DNA from: Candidatus Bathyarchaeota archaeon
GTDB lineage: Archaea > Thermoproteota > Bathyarchaeia > 40CM-2-53-6
Length of the DNA stretch: 38,173 nucleotides
Direction of reading: 5' to 3'
NCBI GenBank assembly: GCA_005888635.1
Contig: VBAW01000026.1
Coordinates: forward strand, 1-38,173
Position numbers and translations under genes: made by a program. Shown here piece by piece: positions 5,731 through 13,260 of this stretch. Below the pieces are notes generated by a model, which saw only the letters and a list, made by a program, of their open reading frames with translations, was not told the origin of the DNA and made no database searches. How positions within the stretch are numbered: position 1 is the stretch's first letter; each line of letters starts with the position of its first letter.

Positions 5731-6708
5731 TTGAAGCGAGACCTGTCCATCGAGACGAAGAGTCTGAGACGACTCTTCAAAGGCATACCCGGAAAGGGAG
5801 ACGTGGTAGCCCTCGATCAGGTCGATCTGGAAGTCTATGATGATGAAATATTCGGGCTCCTGGGTCCGAACGGTGCAGGAAAAACCACACTCATCAAAAT
5901 ACTATGCACTCTCCTCTTACCTACAGAAGGACAGGCACTGATCAAAGGCCTAGACGTTGTGAAGCGGGCCTCCCAGATACGTCGGATCATAAATCTCGTT
6001 TCAGGCGGGGAAACACCGGGTTACGGAATCCTCAGTGTCAAAGAGAACCTCTGGTTCTTCTCCCAACTCTATGGCCTACCACGAGACTTCGCAAAAGACC
6101 GGATCGCGAAACTGGTTGACCAGCTGGAACTCCAAGACTACCTTAACACTCGAATGAGCAAACTCTCGACCGGATACAAACAGAGACTAAACCTAGCTCG
6201 CGGTTTCGTTAACGACCCTGCAATATTGTTTCTCGACGAGCCTACCCTGGGTCTTGACGTTCTCTCGGCAAGGCACCTGAGAACTCTAGTCAAGGACTGG
6301 ATCCGGACTGGAGGAAAGACGGTGCTTCTAACAACGCATTACATGGCAGAAGCAGACCAGTTGTGTGACCGTGTAGGAATCATCAATCGGGGCAAGATTC
6401 TCGCCTGCGATACTCCTCAACGACTCAAGACGAAGGTTACCGGAGGAGCTACTTGGAAGATCGAGATAACCCCGAATCTTTCGGAACTAGAATCCGTCAA
6501 GAGCATCCCAGGCGTCGTCGGACTCTCAACTACTGACAACATCGAGACAGGTGTAACCACCCTCAAGCTGGTTCTCGAAGAGGAATCCGTCATGTCAGAT
6601 CTTCTAAGCAAGATCCGCGAGAACGGCTCTAAAGTCCTCAACATGGGAAAATCCGAACCGACTCTAGAAGACGTGTACATCAGCCTAGTCGGGACCGGCA
6701 TGGAATAA
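5731..6708 (+). CDS. ABC-2 exporter ATP-binding protein
   Basis: Cytoplasmic ATPase driving an ABC-2 type (DrrAB/Nod-like) exporter. It shows GPNGAGKTT (Walker A, about residues 44-52), the signature LSTGYKQRL, ILFLDEPTLGLD (Walker B) and the switch histidine in LLTTHYMAE. A C-terminal regulatory domain of about 100 residues follows, as in DrrA-type proteins. The TTG start at 5731 lies about 30 nt after an AT-rich CTCTTATCAAA that could be the TATA box. Its stop overlaps the ATG of the first permease (TAATG), so the three genes 5731-8401 form one operon. The substrate is unknown; this class exports drugs, lipids, or polymers. Confidence 0.92.
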   Translation: MKRDLSIETKSLRRLFKGIPGKGDVVALDQVDLEVYDDEIFGLLGPNGAGKTTLIKILCTLLLPTEGQALIKGLDVVKRASQIRRIINLVSGGETPGYGILSVKENLWFFSQLYGLPRDFAKDRIAKLVDQLELQDYLNTRMSKLSTGYKQRLNLARGFVNDPAILFLDEPTLGLDVLSARHLRTLVKDWIRTGGKTVLLTTHYMAEADQLCDRVGIINRGKILACDTPQRLKTKVTGGATWKIEITPNLSELESVKSIPGVVGLSTTDNIETGVTTLKLVLEEESVMSDLLSKIRENGSKVLNMGKSEPTLEDVYISLVGTGME

Positions 6709-7544
6709 TGTTACCTAAAGCGACGCCTCGAGAAGAACTGCTCATCAATCTACGCGCAGCCTACGCACGAATGTGGGTCCGACTCAGAGGAAGCAACCGG
6801 GAGATCACTGGGCTAGTCGCAGAAATCGGACTACCAATACTGACTATCGGCGCTTACGTGATTCTCTACCGGGCGATCGGGCTCCCCCCGACAGCCGGGG
6901 CGGCTGTGATCATAGGAGGGGCAATGATCGCTTTCTGGACGAACGTTCTCTGGAACATGTCGTCCCAATGGTTCTGGGAACGAGAATCAGGAAACTTGGA
7001 GATGTACCTAGTTGCGCCTGTTAGCAGAATGTCTGTCCTCCTGGGAATGGCGATGGGGGGCAGTGTGAACACTTCAATCCGAGCCCTGGGCATTGTCCTC
7101 CTCGGAATATTCGTTTTCCAAGTGCCATTCCAGCTCGCAGACCCACTCTCCATAGGCCTCGTATTCGTCTTAACGCTCGTCGCTCTTTACACAATGGGGA
7201 TGCTGTTTGCCTCAATCTTCATGCTCTACGGACGAGAAGCATGGAATACTGCTAATCTGCTCCAAGAACCCGTATACTTCCTTTCAGGGGCTTATTTCCC
7301 TAGAATCTATGCTCCAGTCGTCCCATTCGCCCTCCAAGCAGCAGGTTCGCTGATACCAATGACAATCGGACTGGACGCAATTCGCAGACTGGCAATTAAC
7401 GGAGAAGGCATCGCAACCGTATGGCCACACATCCTAGCACTCATCGCTTGCACTCTGATTCTTTTCCCACTTGCCCGACGCGCACTGAACTACATGGAAT
7501 CCCTCGGGAAGAAAGAAGGGAGGCTGACATTGCGATGGCAATAG
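6708..7544 (+). CDS. ABC-2 type permease, first subunit
   Basis: Integral membrane subunit of 278 residues with about six hydrophobic helices, including PILTIGAYVILYRAIGL, TIALDA-like extracytoplasmic turns and a last helix ILALIACTLILFPLARRAL. The ABC-2 pattern FLSGAYFPR (FxSGxxFP) lies before the C-terminal helices. It overlaps the ATPase stop by one base and the next permease by 10 bases, so the pair is translationally coupled. Two different permeases with one ATPase suggest a heterodimeric channel. Confidence 0.87.
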   Translation: MLPKATPREELLINLRAAYARMWVRLRGSNREITGLVAEIGLPILTIGAYVILYRAIGLPPTAGAAVIIGGAMIAFWTNVLWNMSSQWFWERESGNLEMYLVAPVSRMSVLLGMAMGGSVNTSIRALGIVLLGIFVFQVPFQLADPLSIGLVFVLTLVALYTMGMLFASIFMLYGREAWNTANLLQEPVYFLSGAYFPRIYAPVVPFALQAAGSLIPMTIGLDAIRRLAINGEGIATVWPHILALIACTLILFPLARRALNYMESLGKKEGRLTLRWQ

Positions 7545-8401
7545 CAGACTTCGTCAAGTCGGCAGGAGAATCTTTCAGAGTAGGCTGGAAAATCGAGAGC
7601 AACTGGACAGACCCGGTTCTATTTGCCACCTACCAAGTCATTCGGCCACTAGCATCTCTGCTGATTGTAGCTTTCATCGTGATAATTGGAGCATCAGTCG
7701 GTGCATCAGCGAACTCCGCTTTCTACAGCCAATACTTAGCATGGCTGATCGTCGGCAACGCGTTCTACGCGTTCGTCCTACAGATAATGCTGGGAATGGC
7801 AATACTGGTCCATGTTGACCGCACGAGATACGAGGTATTGAAGAACATCTACATCTCACCCGGGACCCTACACCCATACGTGATTGGAAGAGGACTGGTC
7901 TCAGTCGTAAACGGAGCAGTCTCGGTAATACTGACGCTTTTGTTTAGCGTCGCAATCTTCAACGGCCTACTTCACATGAACATTCCGCTTAACCTTCTAA
8001 ACGTGAATCTTCTGATGCTTCTTCCTGCTGTGATTCTCGGAATCGTCAGCCTGCTCGCCATTGGCTACATGCTTTGCGCTGTAAACATCGTTTCGAATCG
8101 AATGGAATTCATCCTGGGCGACTCTGTCTCAGGCATCTTCTTCCTTCTCGGGGGAGTCATCTTCCCAATTGCCCTACTGCCCTCGTACGTACAGCCGATC
8201 TCGAATGTGTTGCCGATAACCTACTTGCTCAACGCTGTTCGAGAGAGCTTCGGTCTCTTGCCCACAGCGAGCTACATGTCAGATCTTGCCTACTTGGCTG
8301 TGACGACTCTTGTTACATTGATCATTGGGATTGCAGTGTTCAGGCTGGCCGAACAGAGGGCGAAGAAGCTCGGACTCTTTGACCGGAAATCAGAATACTG
8401 A
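7535..8401 (+). CDS. ABC-2 type permease, second subunit
   Basis: Second membrane subunit of the exporter, 288 residues from the ATG at 7535. I chose this ATG because it follows GGGAGG at suitable spacing and gives MAIADFVKSAGESF; the longer in-frame start at 7421 lies inside the first permease and adds an implausible polar leader. It has about six hydrophobic helices; LGGVIFPIALLP is the counterpart of the ABC-2 FxxGxxFP motif. It ends tail to tail with the kinase gene on the other strand, with only two bases between the stops. Confidence 0.87.
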   Translation: MAIADFVKSAGESFRVGWKIESNWTDPVLFATYQVIRPLASLLIVAFIVIIGASVGASANSAFYSQYLAWLIVGNAFYAFVLQIMLGMAILVHVDRTRYEVLKNIYISPGTLHPYVIGRGLVSVVNGAVSVILTLLFSVAIFNGLLHMNIPLNLLNVNLLMLLPAVILGIVSLLAIGYMLCAVNIVSNRMEFILGDSVSGIFFLLGGVIFPIALLPSYVQPISNVLPITYLLNAVRESFGLLPTASYMSDLAYLAVTTLVTLIIGIAVFRLAEQRAKKLGLFDRKSEY

Positions 8402-10596: not shown

Positions 10597-11181
10597 TTAC
10601 TTGTGCGCAGGAACTTCGTAGAGAGTTGAATACTTTGGTCCTGAGGGAGAGAGAACGCTCTGTTTGAGCCTTACATTTTCCACTGAGAAGGTTCCGAAGC
10701 TCTCGTCAGCCAAGCGACCCAGGAAGGCGGCGATTTCGTCCCTCTTTCGTCCGGATTTGACCCGGGCAACTGTGATGTGAGGACTGAAAGGTCGGGTCTC
10801 ACGGCTGAAACCGAGTTGATGAAGAAGCTTCTCAGTCTGCTCATAGATGAGTTCGACTTGACTCCAACCCTCGCCTACGCCTACCCAGATGACATTCATC
10901 CGCTTGAGGTTCGGAAAGGCTCCGGCGCCGTTGATCTCGAGGAAGAATGGTGGAAAAGTCACTTGCGCAAGAGCGGACTTTACTTCTTCAACTTTCGAGG
11001 CGCTGATATTCCCGAGGAATTTCAGAGTCAGATGGATGTTCTCTCGTTCCACAGGTTTCAGATCTCCTCCGAGAGAGGAGAGCGAAGACATGATAGATTC
11101 GACCTGAGAGAGAATTTTTTCATCCTCAAGATCGATCGAGACGAAACTGCGAATCTGGCTGCTTGACAACGCCTCTGACAC
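10597..11181 (-). CDS. thpR: RNA 2',3'-cyclic phosphodiesterase (2H family, ThpR/LigT)
   Basis: A 2H phosphoesterase of 194 residues that opens 2',3'-cyclic phosphates on RNA ends to 2'-phosphates. Both catalytic HxT motifs are present: HLTLKFLG (His50, Thr52) and HITVARVK (His135, Thr137), with the usual spacing of about 85 residues. The start is GTG; CTCTTAAAACG about 20 nt upstream on the minus strand may be its TATA box. It leads the operon with the CCA-adding enzyme, an order seen in other archaea, consistent with work on tRNA or other RNA termini. Confidence 0.92.
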   Translation of the reverse strand: MSEALSSSQIRSFVSIDLEDEKILSQVESIMSSLSSLGGDLKPVERENIHLTLKFLGNISASKVEEVKSALAQVTFPPFFLEINGAGAFPNLKRMNVIWVGVGEGWSQVELIYEQTEKLLHQLGFSRETRPFSPHITVARVKSGRKRDEIAAFLGRLADESFGTFSVENVRLKQSVLSPSGPKYSTLYEVPAHK

Positions 11182-11471
11182 TTCAGAAGGCTCGTTTTAA
11201 GAGATTGAGTTAGAAGCCGTCTTAGACGCTCGTCATGAAAGCTTCAGATTGACAACAGTCAACCCGATCCCGCATCACCATCTTGGGAGCAGGATCAAAC
11301 GGACAAGAATTTGTAGGATGAAAGAAAGACTCGAAGAAAAGGACTAACGCGCAGATTGCTTTACCAAAAGAATCTCGAAGAAAATCCAATGGACTCCTGC
11401 GACGCGAAGAAGCAGGCTTTTCCATTCACAGATATACAACCCATTTGCAATTTTCAAAAAGGGATTAGCGA
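11182..11471. other. 290-base intergenic region before the Shedu-like cassette
   Basis: This holds the thpR promoter at its left end and the promoter of the Shedu-like cassette at its right end (AGATATACAACCC about 40 bases before the ATG, then AT-rich sequence). I see no RNA gene. A 67-codon open frame on the minus strand (11222-11425) has no recognisable family or good start and I do not call it. Confidence 0.5.
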
Positions 11472-11744
11472 ATGATCTCTCGCACTCAAATGGAGAAATT
11501 TGTCAATGAATACCTATCGACGATCGACAGACAGTCCACAGCCGTCCCTAGAAGCTACAAGATACTTCTGTTCCCGTCGTACCTCTCGACCCCCCACAAA
11601 ATCAGATGCACAATTTCATCATCCTTTGGTGCTGCTATTCGTTTCGATGAATTTTCTGCCAAATGGGACATAGAAGTATCATTCACTTCAAACAAAATTA
11701 CCGAAGAGGTCCTTCCAAGGCTATCCAACACCGGAGTCCCCTAA
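11472..11744 (+). CDS. Small unknown protein coupled to a Shedu-like nuclease
   Basis: I do not recognise this 90-residue protein. It is predicted soluble, with an N-terminal amphipathic helix (MEKFVNEYLSTI) and then alternating hydrophobic strands (YKILLFPSYL, IRCTISSSFGAAIRF, WDIEVSFTS), so probably a small alpha/beta domain. The first ATG is at 11472; the second in-frame ATG at 11490 is an alternative. Its TAA overlaps the ATG of the nuclease gene (TAATG), so the two are translated together and probably act together. It could be an inhibitor, sensor or structural partner of the nuclease; alternatively it is the N-terminal domain that is fused in other Shedu proteins. Base composition is visibly more A+T-rich than in the flanking genes. 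Confidence 0.7.
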   Translation: MISRTQMEKFVNEYLSTIDRQSTAVPRSYKILLFPSYLSTPHKIRCTISSSFGAAIRFDEFSAKWDIEVSFTSNKITEEVLPRLSNTGVP

Positions 11745-12637
11745 TGCAGGTTCAGGGCGCCGATACCCATATAGTCAACATAAATTTCATAACACGAGAT
11801 TTTTACGACCGCTACGAAAAGATAATCACCGCCCTCTCGAGGGCAACCAATTTCCGACTGGACGCCGACTTCAGCAGATTCATTGACTTAACGGCAGGAG
11901 ACGTGAGACTCGTCGACGTTTCGTTTGCCTACATTAGCGAGGGCAAAGACACTGTCTATAGGATCCCTTGCCTCTGGTTGTTCGCAAGCAACTCCTCGCT
12001 CGAATTCACGCGAGAGAAAGCCAGGGCCCTCGCTCTTCAACACTATAGATCAATAATGGAAAATGCCGTACAGACGGCGCCGATCCAGATGCTCTCAGGC
12101 ACATTGGAAGCCTACGAAAAACTTTTGGAAGCTGCAAACCTTGCCGAACAACACCTACAGACGTTTCTCGATAATAATCCGATTCTCATTGAACCCTCGT
12201 TTAAGGGCAAATGGACGAAAGGTGACCTGAGACGATTCCGGCTCCCTGAAGCGGATTTCTTGCTAAAAACCTCTGATAACAGATTCGTTGTTGTAGAACT
12301 CGAAAACCCGACAGATCGCTTATTGAACGCGTCGACTCTGGGCCCGAGCGCCGAACTGCGGATGGCCGAAACGCAAATTACGAACTATCTTAGCGATATT
12401 CAAAATGGCATACTAACTTACCGCAACTCTTTCGACCGAGACCTTAGTGTTGAGAATGTGTCAGGGCAAGTCATCATCGGACGAAGCTCAAGACTAAGTG
12501 CCGACCAGAAGAAAGCATTCGACAAACACGTTTCTACACTAAACTATTCTGTAATCACCTACGACGAGTTGTTACAAAGAAACAGGGCGTTTCTCGATAA
12601 CCTTGGTATCCGCTACGGAGGCTTCAGGGCGAAATAA
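11744..12637 (+). CDS. Shedu-like (SduA, DUF4263) nuclease, probable anti-phage defence
   Basis: A 297-residue protein. The C-terminal half fits the DUF4263 domain of Shedu defence proteins, a PD-(D/E)XK nuclease fold: a helix before the domain (AEQHLQTFLDNNPILIE, about 134-150), PEADFLLK with Asp171, FVVVELENPTD with Glu185 and Glu187, AELRMAETQITNYLSDI with Gln211, GQVIIGRSS (241-249) and the closing VITYDELLQR (270-279). The usual catalytic ExK lysine is not there; the motif reads ELEN. The N-terminal 130 residues are unrecognised and presumably sense or regulate. I start it at the ATG overlapping the upstream stop; a longer frame from 11663 would lie wholly inside the upstream gene. Shedu systems are usually single genes, so the coupled partner is unusual. 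Confidence 0.8.
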   Translation: MQVQGADTHIVNINFITRDFYDRYEKIITALSRATNFRLDADFSRFIDLTAGDVRLVDVSFAYISEGKDTVYRIPCLWLFASNSSLEFTREKARALALQHYRSIMENAVQTAPIQMLSGTLEAYEKLLEAANLAEQHLQTFLDNNPILIEPSFKGKWTKGDLRRFRLPEADFLLKTSDNRFVVVELENPTDRLLNASTLGPSAELRMAETQITNYLSDIQNGILTYRNSFDRDLSVENVSGQVIIGRSSRLSADQKKAFDKHVSTLNYSVITYDELLQRNRAFLDNLGIRYGGFRAK

Positions 12638-12687
12638 CCCGATCAAGAGCTATAACTGCCGCGTTTGTCAACCGTCGAGAGCCGTAA

Positions 12688-13260
12688 TTGCAATCGACGA
12701 AACCAAAGAAGACGGTACTGGTTATCGTTGGAATGCCTGGAGCTGGTAAGAGCCTCGCTTCAAGTGTGATGAAGACGCGAGGAATTCCAGTCTTCGTCTC
12801 TGGCGATATCATTCGGGCAGAGGCACGGAAGAGGAAGCTGAGGTTCACTCGGAAGAATCTCGGAGAGCTCATGCTGAAGATTCGAAAGGAAGAAGGCATG
12901 GGGGCTGTTGCAAAAAGACTGGTTCCACTGGTTGAGAAGACAAGTGGAGAATTTGTTGTGTACGAGGGTGCGAGAAGCGTTGAAGAAGTCGATCAACTTC
13001 GCCGGAAATTTCGCGTTGTCACGATAGCGATCCACGCTTCTCGCGAGGCACGATTCCGAAGGCTTCAGCGGAGGGGACGGTCAGATAGGCCGAGAGGATG
13101 GGCTGACTTTGCGGAACGTGACAATCGCGAGCTTGGGGTTGGGATTGCGAAACTTATTGCGTTGGCAGATCGGACGGTTGAGAATGAAGATACCAAGGAT
13201 GATCTCAAGAGGCGAACTAGACGAGTGCTCCAAGTAGTGCTCAAGCAGAAAAAATCCTAG
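12688..13260 (+). CDS. UPF0200 family nucleotide kinase-like protein
   Basis: P-loop protein of 190 residues related to dephospho-CoA/adenylate kinases. Walker A is GMPGAGKS (15-22). VFVSGDIIRAEARKR and LGELMLKIRKEEGMGAVAKR match the UPF0200 archaeal family, and an arginine-rich lid (RRLQRRGRSDRPRG) follows. Its substrate is not established. The start is TTG; an AT-rich GCTATAACT lies about 35 bases upstream. The stop overlaps the GTG of the UPF0201 gene. UPF0200 and UPF0201 are typical archaeal neighbours, which suggests a joint but unknown role. Confidence 0.87.
   Translation: MQSTKPKKTVLVIVGMPGAGKSLASSVMKTRGIPVFVSGDIIRAEARKRKLRFTRKNLGELMLKIRKEEGMGAVAKRLVPLVEKTSGEFVVYEGARSVEEVDQLRRKFRVVTIAIHASREARFRRLQRRGRSDRPRGWADFAERDNRELGVGIAKLIALADRTVENEDTKDDLKRRTRRVLQVVLKQKKS

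What the first reader, a model, noticed from the sequence alone, without database searches (positions are those of the whole stretch)
11472..12637. Two-gene Shedu-like defence cassette with an unknown coupled partner
A Shedu (DUF4263) nuclease-like protein is directly preceded by a 90-residue unknown protein whose stop overlaps the nuclease start (TAATG). Known Shedu systems act as single genes. The cassette sits alone between housekeeping operons and looks richer in A+T than its flanks, as expected for an acquired defence module. The small protein could be an inhibitor, a sensor or a split-off domain.
Basis: partly seen in the sequence, partly recalled or inferred. Interest (0 to 1): 0.85.

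Follow-up and report, generated by a model that had tools for sequence, protein, structure and literature searches.

The report
Archaeal Shedu nuclease with small gene
An archaeon carries a gained gene of the known Shedu virus-defence nuclease family, read together with a tiny unknown protein that may control it; the nuclease lacks one usual catalytic residue, and the role of the tiny protein is unproven.

Summary
The 297-aa protein belongs to the Shedu family (Pfam SduA_C 3e-17; PADLOC SduA 6e-19) but has Glu where solved Shedu enzymes have the catalytic Lys (E-x-E), as do 11 of 26 loci compared. The pair sits in a ~1.44-kb A+T-richer insert in the divergent promoter between ThpR and a kinase gene. 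In 15 of 18 scored genomes of the family that site is empty; two others hold unrelated inserts. The gene was gained, and the site is used repeatedly. No relative of the 90-aa protein was found in the collections searched, so co-occurrence could not be tested. Its codon use is nearer to coding than to off-frame sequence. The TAATG overlap is uninformative: random one-base shifts give an ATG overlap in 6.4% of cases, real neighbour pairs in 2 of 26. A split single gene stays a serious rival. Best reading: a two-gene variant of a known kind, the small protein being a separately made regulatory subunit. Both structure predictions failed.

The parts
11472..11744 (+). 90-aa ORF of unknown family, TAA stop 11742-11744
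   Evidence: No family match over a cut-off; codon score 0.040 per codon, between off-frame (-0.286, sd 0.143) and real segments (0.197, sd 0.089)
11733..11736 (+). GGAG, possible ribosome-binding site for the nuclease gene
   Evidence: Read from the sequence; function inferred
11744..12637 (+). 297-aa Shedu-family (SduA_C/DUF4263) protein
   Evidence: Pfam PF14082 3e-17 over residues 134-277; PADLOC PDLC00389 6e-19 over 29-287
12254..12304 (+). Active-site motif: D171, E185 and E187 (Glu in place of the Lys of solved Shedu enzymes)
   Evidence: Alignment A3 and profile alignment to PDB 8ti8 and 8ps4
11194..11203 (.). Left copy (GTTTTAAGAG) of the divergent promoter element, next to ThpR
   Evidence: Comparison with empty sites
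12641..12656 (.). Right copy (CGATCAAGAGCTATAAC region) of the element, next to the kinase gene
11204..12644 (.). Inserted segment absent from 15 of 18 genomes scored
   Evidence: 46.6% GC against 51.7%

Best explanation
A laterally gained two-gene Shedu variant. The 297-aa protein is the DNA-cutting effector (family membership shown; cutting inferred, and less sure because Glu replaces the usual Lys). The 90-aa protein is made from the same message just before it, in step with it (inferred), and acts as a detached regulatory lobe that keeps the nuclease silent until invading DNA, probably DNA ends, is met (inferred from the role of the N-terminal parts of studied Shedu proteins). The sizes fit: 90 + 297 = 387 aa, against 383 for the single-gene family PDLC00389, whose first 127 positions the nuclease does not match. 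Membership of the nuclease in the family alone I put at 0.95; the confidence below is for the whole statement.
For: Family match; gained insert; codon use of the small ORF closer to coding than to off-frame sequence, and the signal keeps to its frame up to its stop; GGAG before the second ATG; length and order match PDLC00389; N-terminal parts of Shedu proteins are diverse and regulatory (PMC12904381 and PMC12137116, passages); small coupled or abutting upstream ORFs also before two other E-x-E Shedu genes, L040 and L082.
Against: No relative of the small protein, so no conserved adjacency. No significant similarity of it to the N-termini of L010 (169 of 500 shuffles as good) or L080 (60 of 500); profile comparison weak and not colinear (2 of 60 shuffles as good). 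The overlap itself is no better than a random frameshift would give. Same-class Shedu genes L043, L045 and L046 have no coupled small gene. The small ORF scores at the 3rd percentile of real segments. Missing Lys. Structure predictions failed.
Confidence: 0.38

Rival explanations
1. One ordinary single-gene Shedu protein of about 388 aa, split in two by a one-base change near the junction, either an assembly error or a real inactivating mutation.
For: Studied Shedu systems are single genes with an N-terminal regulatory part. Summed length matches PDLC00389. A random one-base shift gives such an ATG overlap in 6.4% of cases, as often as real neighbour pairs do (2 of 26). Frame breaks occur in related drafts: the Shedu gene of L040 and the kinase gene of G010 (1 of 18).
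Against: GGAG just before the second ATG. The compared neighbours in this window (kinase, ThpR, CCA enzyme and others against L067) are intact. The nuclease is complete by itself as short Shedu proteins go (L027 254 aa, L074 226, L081 237, L082 206). No sequence similarity of the small ORF to Shedu N-termini found.
Confidence: 0.28
2. Toxin-antitoxin-like pair: the nuclease harms the cell unless bound by the 90-aa protein, and infection upsets the balance.
For: Small gene first and coupled, as in many such pairs (recalled). A review says that heterologous Shedu expression is toxic (PMC12904381, passage). A small protein silences another defence effector, Sofic, though encoded downstream (PMC12249575, abstract).
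Against: No similarity to any antitoxin family over a cut-off.
Confidence: 0.14
3. The 90-aa ORF is not a functional protein or has no link to the nuclease, which acts alone as a short Shedu protein.
For: No relatives; codon score low (3.2% of real segments as low, 1.5% of off-frame segments as high); short Shedu proteins without a coupled small gene exist (L027, L028).
Against: 90 codons open, and the signal switches to the nuclease frame at its stop.
Confidence: 0.15
4. Programmed -1 frameshifting: ribosomes sometimes slip just before the stop and make a fused protein, so that both forms exist.
For: A run of four C directly before the TAA, with the second frame open across it.
Against: Four-base runs are common; no relative in which to test conservation; no downstream structure tested.
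Confidence: 0.03

Closest known systems
Shedu SduA, PADLOC family PDLC00389 (383 positions; L010 of Planococcus matches it over 1-381)
   Same: E-x-E motif in L010, best-scoring PADLOC model for the window protein, similar nuclease domain.
   Different: One continuous protein; its first 127 positions are not matched by the window protein, nor detectably by the 90-aa ORF.
Solved Shedu proteins PDB 8ti8/8ti9/8tia (SduA) and 8ps4/8ps5 (Shedu effector)
   Same: C-terminal nuclease domain, D and E of the motif.
   Different: Lys in the motif; single chains with a fused N-terminal part.
VcSduA (Shedu with an N-terminal GHKL ATPase domain; PMC12137116, passages)
   Same: DUF4263 nuclease with an added control domain.
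   Different: Control domain fused; its K557 is needed for defence, and the window protein has Glu at the motif's Lys position (that the two positions correspond is my inference).
Sofic and its small antidote AS1 (PMC12249575, abstract)
   Same: A small neighbour gene found later beside a defence protein taken for a single-gene system.
   Different: FIC-domain effector, antidote encoded downstream; no shared family.

Membership tests
Shedu (SduA_C / DUF4263) | SduA_C domain over the curated cut-off | tested here: met
   63.7 bits against 27, positions 3-159 of 159
Shedu (SduA_C / DUF4263) | Asp and Glu of the nuclease motif | tested here: met
   D171 and E185
Canonical PD-(D/E)XK catalytic motif | Lys as third motif residue | tested here: not met
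   E187. Not a bar to the Shedu family: 11 of 26 loci compared, among them members of PADLOC SduA models, have E-x-E. I therefore do not call it a canonical PD-(D/E)XK enzyme.
Shedu (as described in reviews) | Single gene with its own N-terminal regulatory part | tested here: inconclusive
   Short N-terminal part (~130 aa) of its own plus a separate 90-aa ORF; two genes or one split gene undecided
Shedu (as described in reviews) | Tetramer, DNA-end cleavage, anti-phage activity | not testable with these tools
   Needs the bench
PADLOC PDLC00389 | Match over the full 383 positions | tested here: not met
   Only positions 128-376, alone or with the 90-aa protein joined in front
Type II toxin-antitoxin pair | Small gene directly before the effector gene, overlapping | tested here: met
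   TAATG overlap
Type II toxin-antitoxin pair | Recognisable antitoxin family | tested here: not met
   No match over a cut-off in Pfam, NCBIfam, PADLOC or PHROGs
Type II toxin-antitoxin pair | Effector toxic alone, relieved by the partner | not testable with these tools
   Needs the bench

The most novel reading that the evidence does not exclude
E-x-E Shedu nucleases form a branch in which control domains are often supplied as separate, exchangeable small proteins encoded directly upstream (window, L040, L082): a two-component Shedu class in archaea and bacteria.
Probability: 0.15. Interest if true: 0.65.

Novelty: new variant of a known kind. Interest (0 to 1): 0.4.

Why it matters
If the small protein controls the nuclease, Shedu would have a separable sensor, which would make it easy to test what licenses these nucleases and why they spare their host. 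The E-x-E branch asks how, or whether, such enzymes cut without the usual lysine. The insertion site shows genes, a defence gene among them, entering this archaeal lineage one at a time at a single promoter.

Tried and rejected
Close relatives of the nuclease: scans of genome contigs and viral contigs with the protein confirmed none by tblastn; an alignment-led viral scan none; phages none; plasmids 5 records at 25.8-34.2% identity at E<=1e-3 and 16 at E<=10. In 398 phylum genomes only this genome and a 26-residue piece in G013. A first viral pattern scan was wrong by one base in its gap and its four hits were ignored; the corrected pattern gave 0 viral stretches and 7 genome stretches, of which 2 (L036, L040) encode Shedu. 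PHROG 5069 for the small protein (E 0.006) rejected as noise: the model rings in 15 of 31 related genomes at E<=1 and in 8 of 14 control genomes. Two weak matches of the small protein in the phylum (L004, one internal stop; L005) lie across or opposite larger ORFs. Similarity to N-termini of L010 and L080 not found. A viral scan and a phage search with L010 found nothing; PDLC00389 in 233 genomes of another phylum gave 2 matches, neither covering the model's N-terminus. Structure predictions unusable (mean pLDDT 44.4 and 37.0), so no fold search was run. Small coupled upstream ORFs: 3 of 10 E-x-E loci and 0 of 14 E-x-K loci with upstream DNA (L010 and L044 are cut there), read by eye; by hand about p 0.06 with the index case and 0.14 without, so no association is claimed. 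No tRNA in the window and no Rfam match in 10900-12900. Literature: Gu et al. 2025 could not be read, and neither it nor Loeff et al. 2025 was seen beyond reference entries and what reviews say. Searches showed me no title or abstract start on a two-gene Shedu; their full texts were not read beyond the passages cited.

It also took the overlap as two-to-one evidence for two genes; compared like with like it is neutral. Odds were lowered accordingly (two-gene subunit 0.42 to 0.38; novel case 0.17 to 0.15), and the split gene moved 0.27 to 0.28.

Full report
What is there. The window (contig C53 of a 2.18-Mb draft genome in 159 contigs) holds a 90-aa ORF at 11472-11744 and a 297-aa ORF at 11744-12637 joined by TAATG. 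The host is an archaeon by gene content: the archaeal CCA-adding enzyme scores 396 bits against a cut-off of 281. The 297-aa protein matches Pfam SduA_C over profile positions 3-159 of 159 at 3e-17 and 20 PADLOC SduA models at E up to 0.034, best PDLC00389 at 6e-19. A profile of eight sequences including it finds three distinct PDB sequences, all called Shedu (8ti8; 8ti9/8tia; 8ps4/8ps5); the protein alone finds none.

Active site. D171 and E185 are kept, but the third motif residue is E187 where the solved enzymes have lysine. Of 26 loci compared (window; 9 of the plasmid records hit; L036, L040; the rest from genome searches), 11 have E-x-E and 15 E-x-K (L076 and L077 read by eye). L036 and L040 were fetched by a pattern that demands it. 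Among the window and the 12 other loci returned by the Pfam model, 5 of 13 have it. In VcSduA the K557A change abolished defence (PMC12137116, passage). Whether E-x-E members cut DNA, as some restriction enzymes with Glu there do (recalled), is open.

The small ORF. It has no family match over a cut-off, no convincing PDB relative (best E 0.85), two weak matches besides itself in 398 phylum genomes that lie across or opposite larger ORFs, none in phages and two chance pieces in plasmids at E 3-4. Its codon score is 0.040 per codon; real 90-codon segments of window genes average 0.197 (sd 0.089), off-frame ones -0.286 (sd 0.143); 3.2% of real segments score as low, 1.5% of off-frame ones as high. 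I take it as probably coding.

Two genes or one broken gene. PDLC00389 is 383 positions long, the two proteins sum to 387 aa, and the nuclease matches only positions 128-376, also with the small protein joined in front. So the small gene stands where that family has its first part. But comparison with L010 (full-length PDLC00389 match) and with L080 (similar to L010 along its length) gave nothing significant (169 of 500 and 60 of 500 shuffles as good), and a profile comparison was weak and not colinear. The overlap is neutral: random one-base shifts give an ATG overlap of 1 or 4 bases in 740 of 11,593 cases (6.4%) and any start codon in 1,829 (15.8%); of 26 other same-strand neighbour pairs in the window 2 (ATG) and 4 (any start) have it. 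The GGAG before the second ATG and the intact compared neighbours speak for two genes; the single-gene habit of the family speaks against.

Origin. The kinase gene was found in 18 of 21 genomes of the family, this one included. In 15 of the 18 the ThpR and kinase starts lie 54-101 bases apart around one AAGAG(C/A)TATAA element. Here the element is present twice, shortened on the left, around 1,441 bp of 46.6% GC. G004 holds a beta-propeller gene (PQQ_2 99.6 bits, cut-off 27.6) and G016 a 97-aa ORF with zinc-ribbon matches below cut-off, each again between two copies of the element. AAGAGCTATAAC occurs once in this genome. PF14082 is found in 2 of 398 phylum genomes and 5 of 256 class genomes, this genome counted in both. 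The gene was gained.

Other Shedu neighbours. L040 (93-aa ORF, 4-base overlap; its Shedu frame is broken) and L082 (84-aa ORF, abutting) have small upstream ORFs; L036 follows a Hen1 RNA-repair gene and L081 a long ORF (open over at least 461 codons), both with 4-base overlap. Neither small ORF has a Pfam match at E<=0.01 (given there with one residue less or more at the start). Same-class L043, L045 and L046 have no coupled small gene; L044 is cut at the contig end. Coupling to another gene is thus not unique, but the case for a two-component class is thin.

Mechanism and verdict. Reviews describe Shedu as a nuclease held inactive and released by binding of DNA ends, with diverse N-terminal parts thought to set specificity (PMC12904381 and PMC12137116, passages). 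I commit to a separate regulatory subunit for the 90-aa protein at 0.38, against a split single gene (0.28), no connection (0.15), an antidote (0.14) and frameshifting (0.03). Shown: family, arrangement, insertion, E-x-E. Inferred: expression, binding, control, cutting, defence. Both structure predictions were too poor to use.

Noticed in passing
window 11194-11203 and 12641-12656; L067; L068: The ThpR-kinase promoter is an insertion hotspot: this genome, G004 (beta-propeller gene) and G016 (97-aa ORF) hold three unrelated inserts, each between two copies of the TTAAGAGCTAT-like element, and all three right ends read CGAT just before it. No recombinase was sought.
   Followed up: partly
L036 2009-4545 (minus strand): In a Phycisphaerae draft an E-x-E Shedu gene overlaps by four bases the end of a Hen1 RNA-repair methyltransferase gene (Hen1_L 389.6 bits).
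   Followed up: partly
L082 1036-1911: An 84-aa ORF, which looks RelE/ParE-like by eye but has no Pfam match, directly abuts a short 206-aa E-x-E (EFE) Shedu-like gene.
   Followed up: partly
L040 1878-2712: In a Poribacteria draft a 93-aa ORF overlaps by four bases a short E-x-E Shedu gene that is itself broken into two frames.
   Followed up: partly
L045 661-1992: Same-class E-x-E Shedu protein whose N-terminal part looks like an FHA domain by eye, followed by a protein-kinase-like gene.
   Followed up: no
window 5731-6708: PADLOC mad3 match (1.8e-24, partial); I read it by eye as an ABC-transporter ATPase beside an ABC-2 membrane protein (7421-8401), not a defence gene.
   Followed up: no
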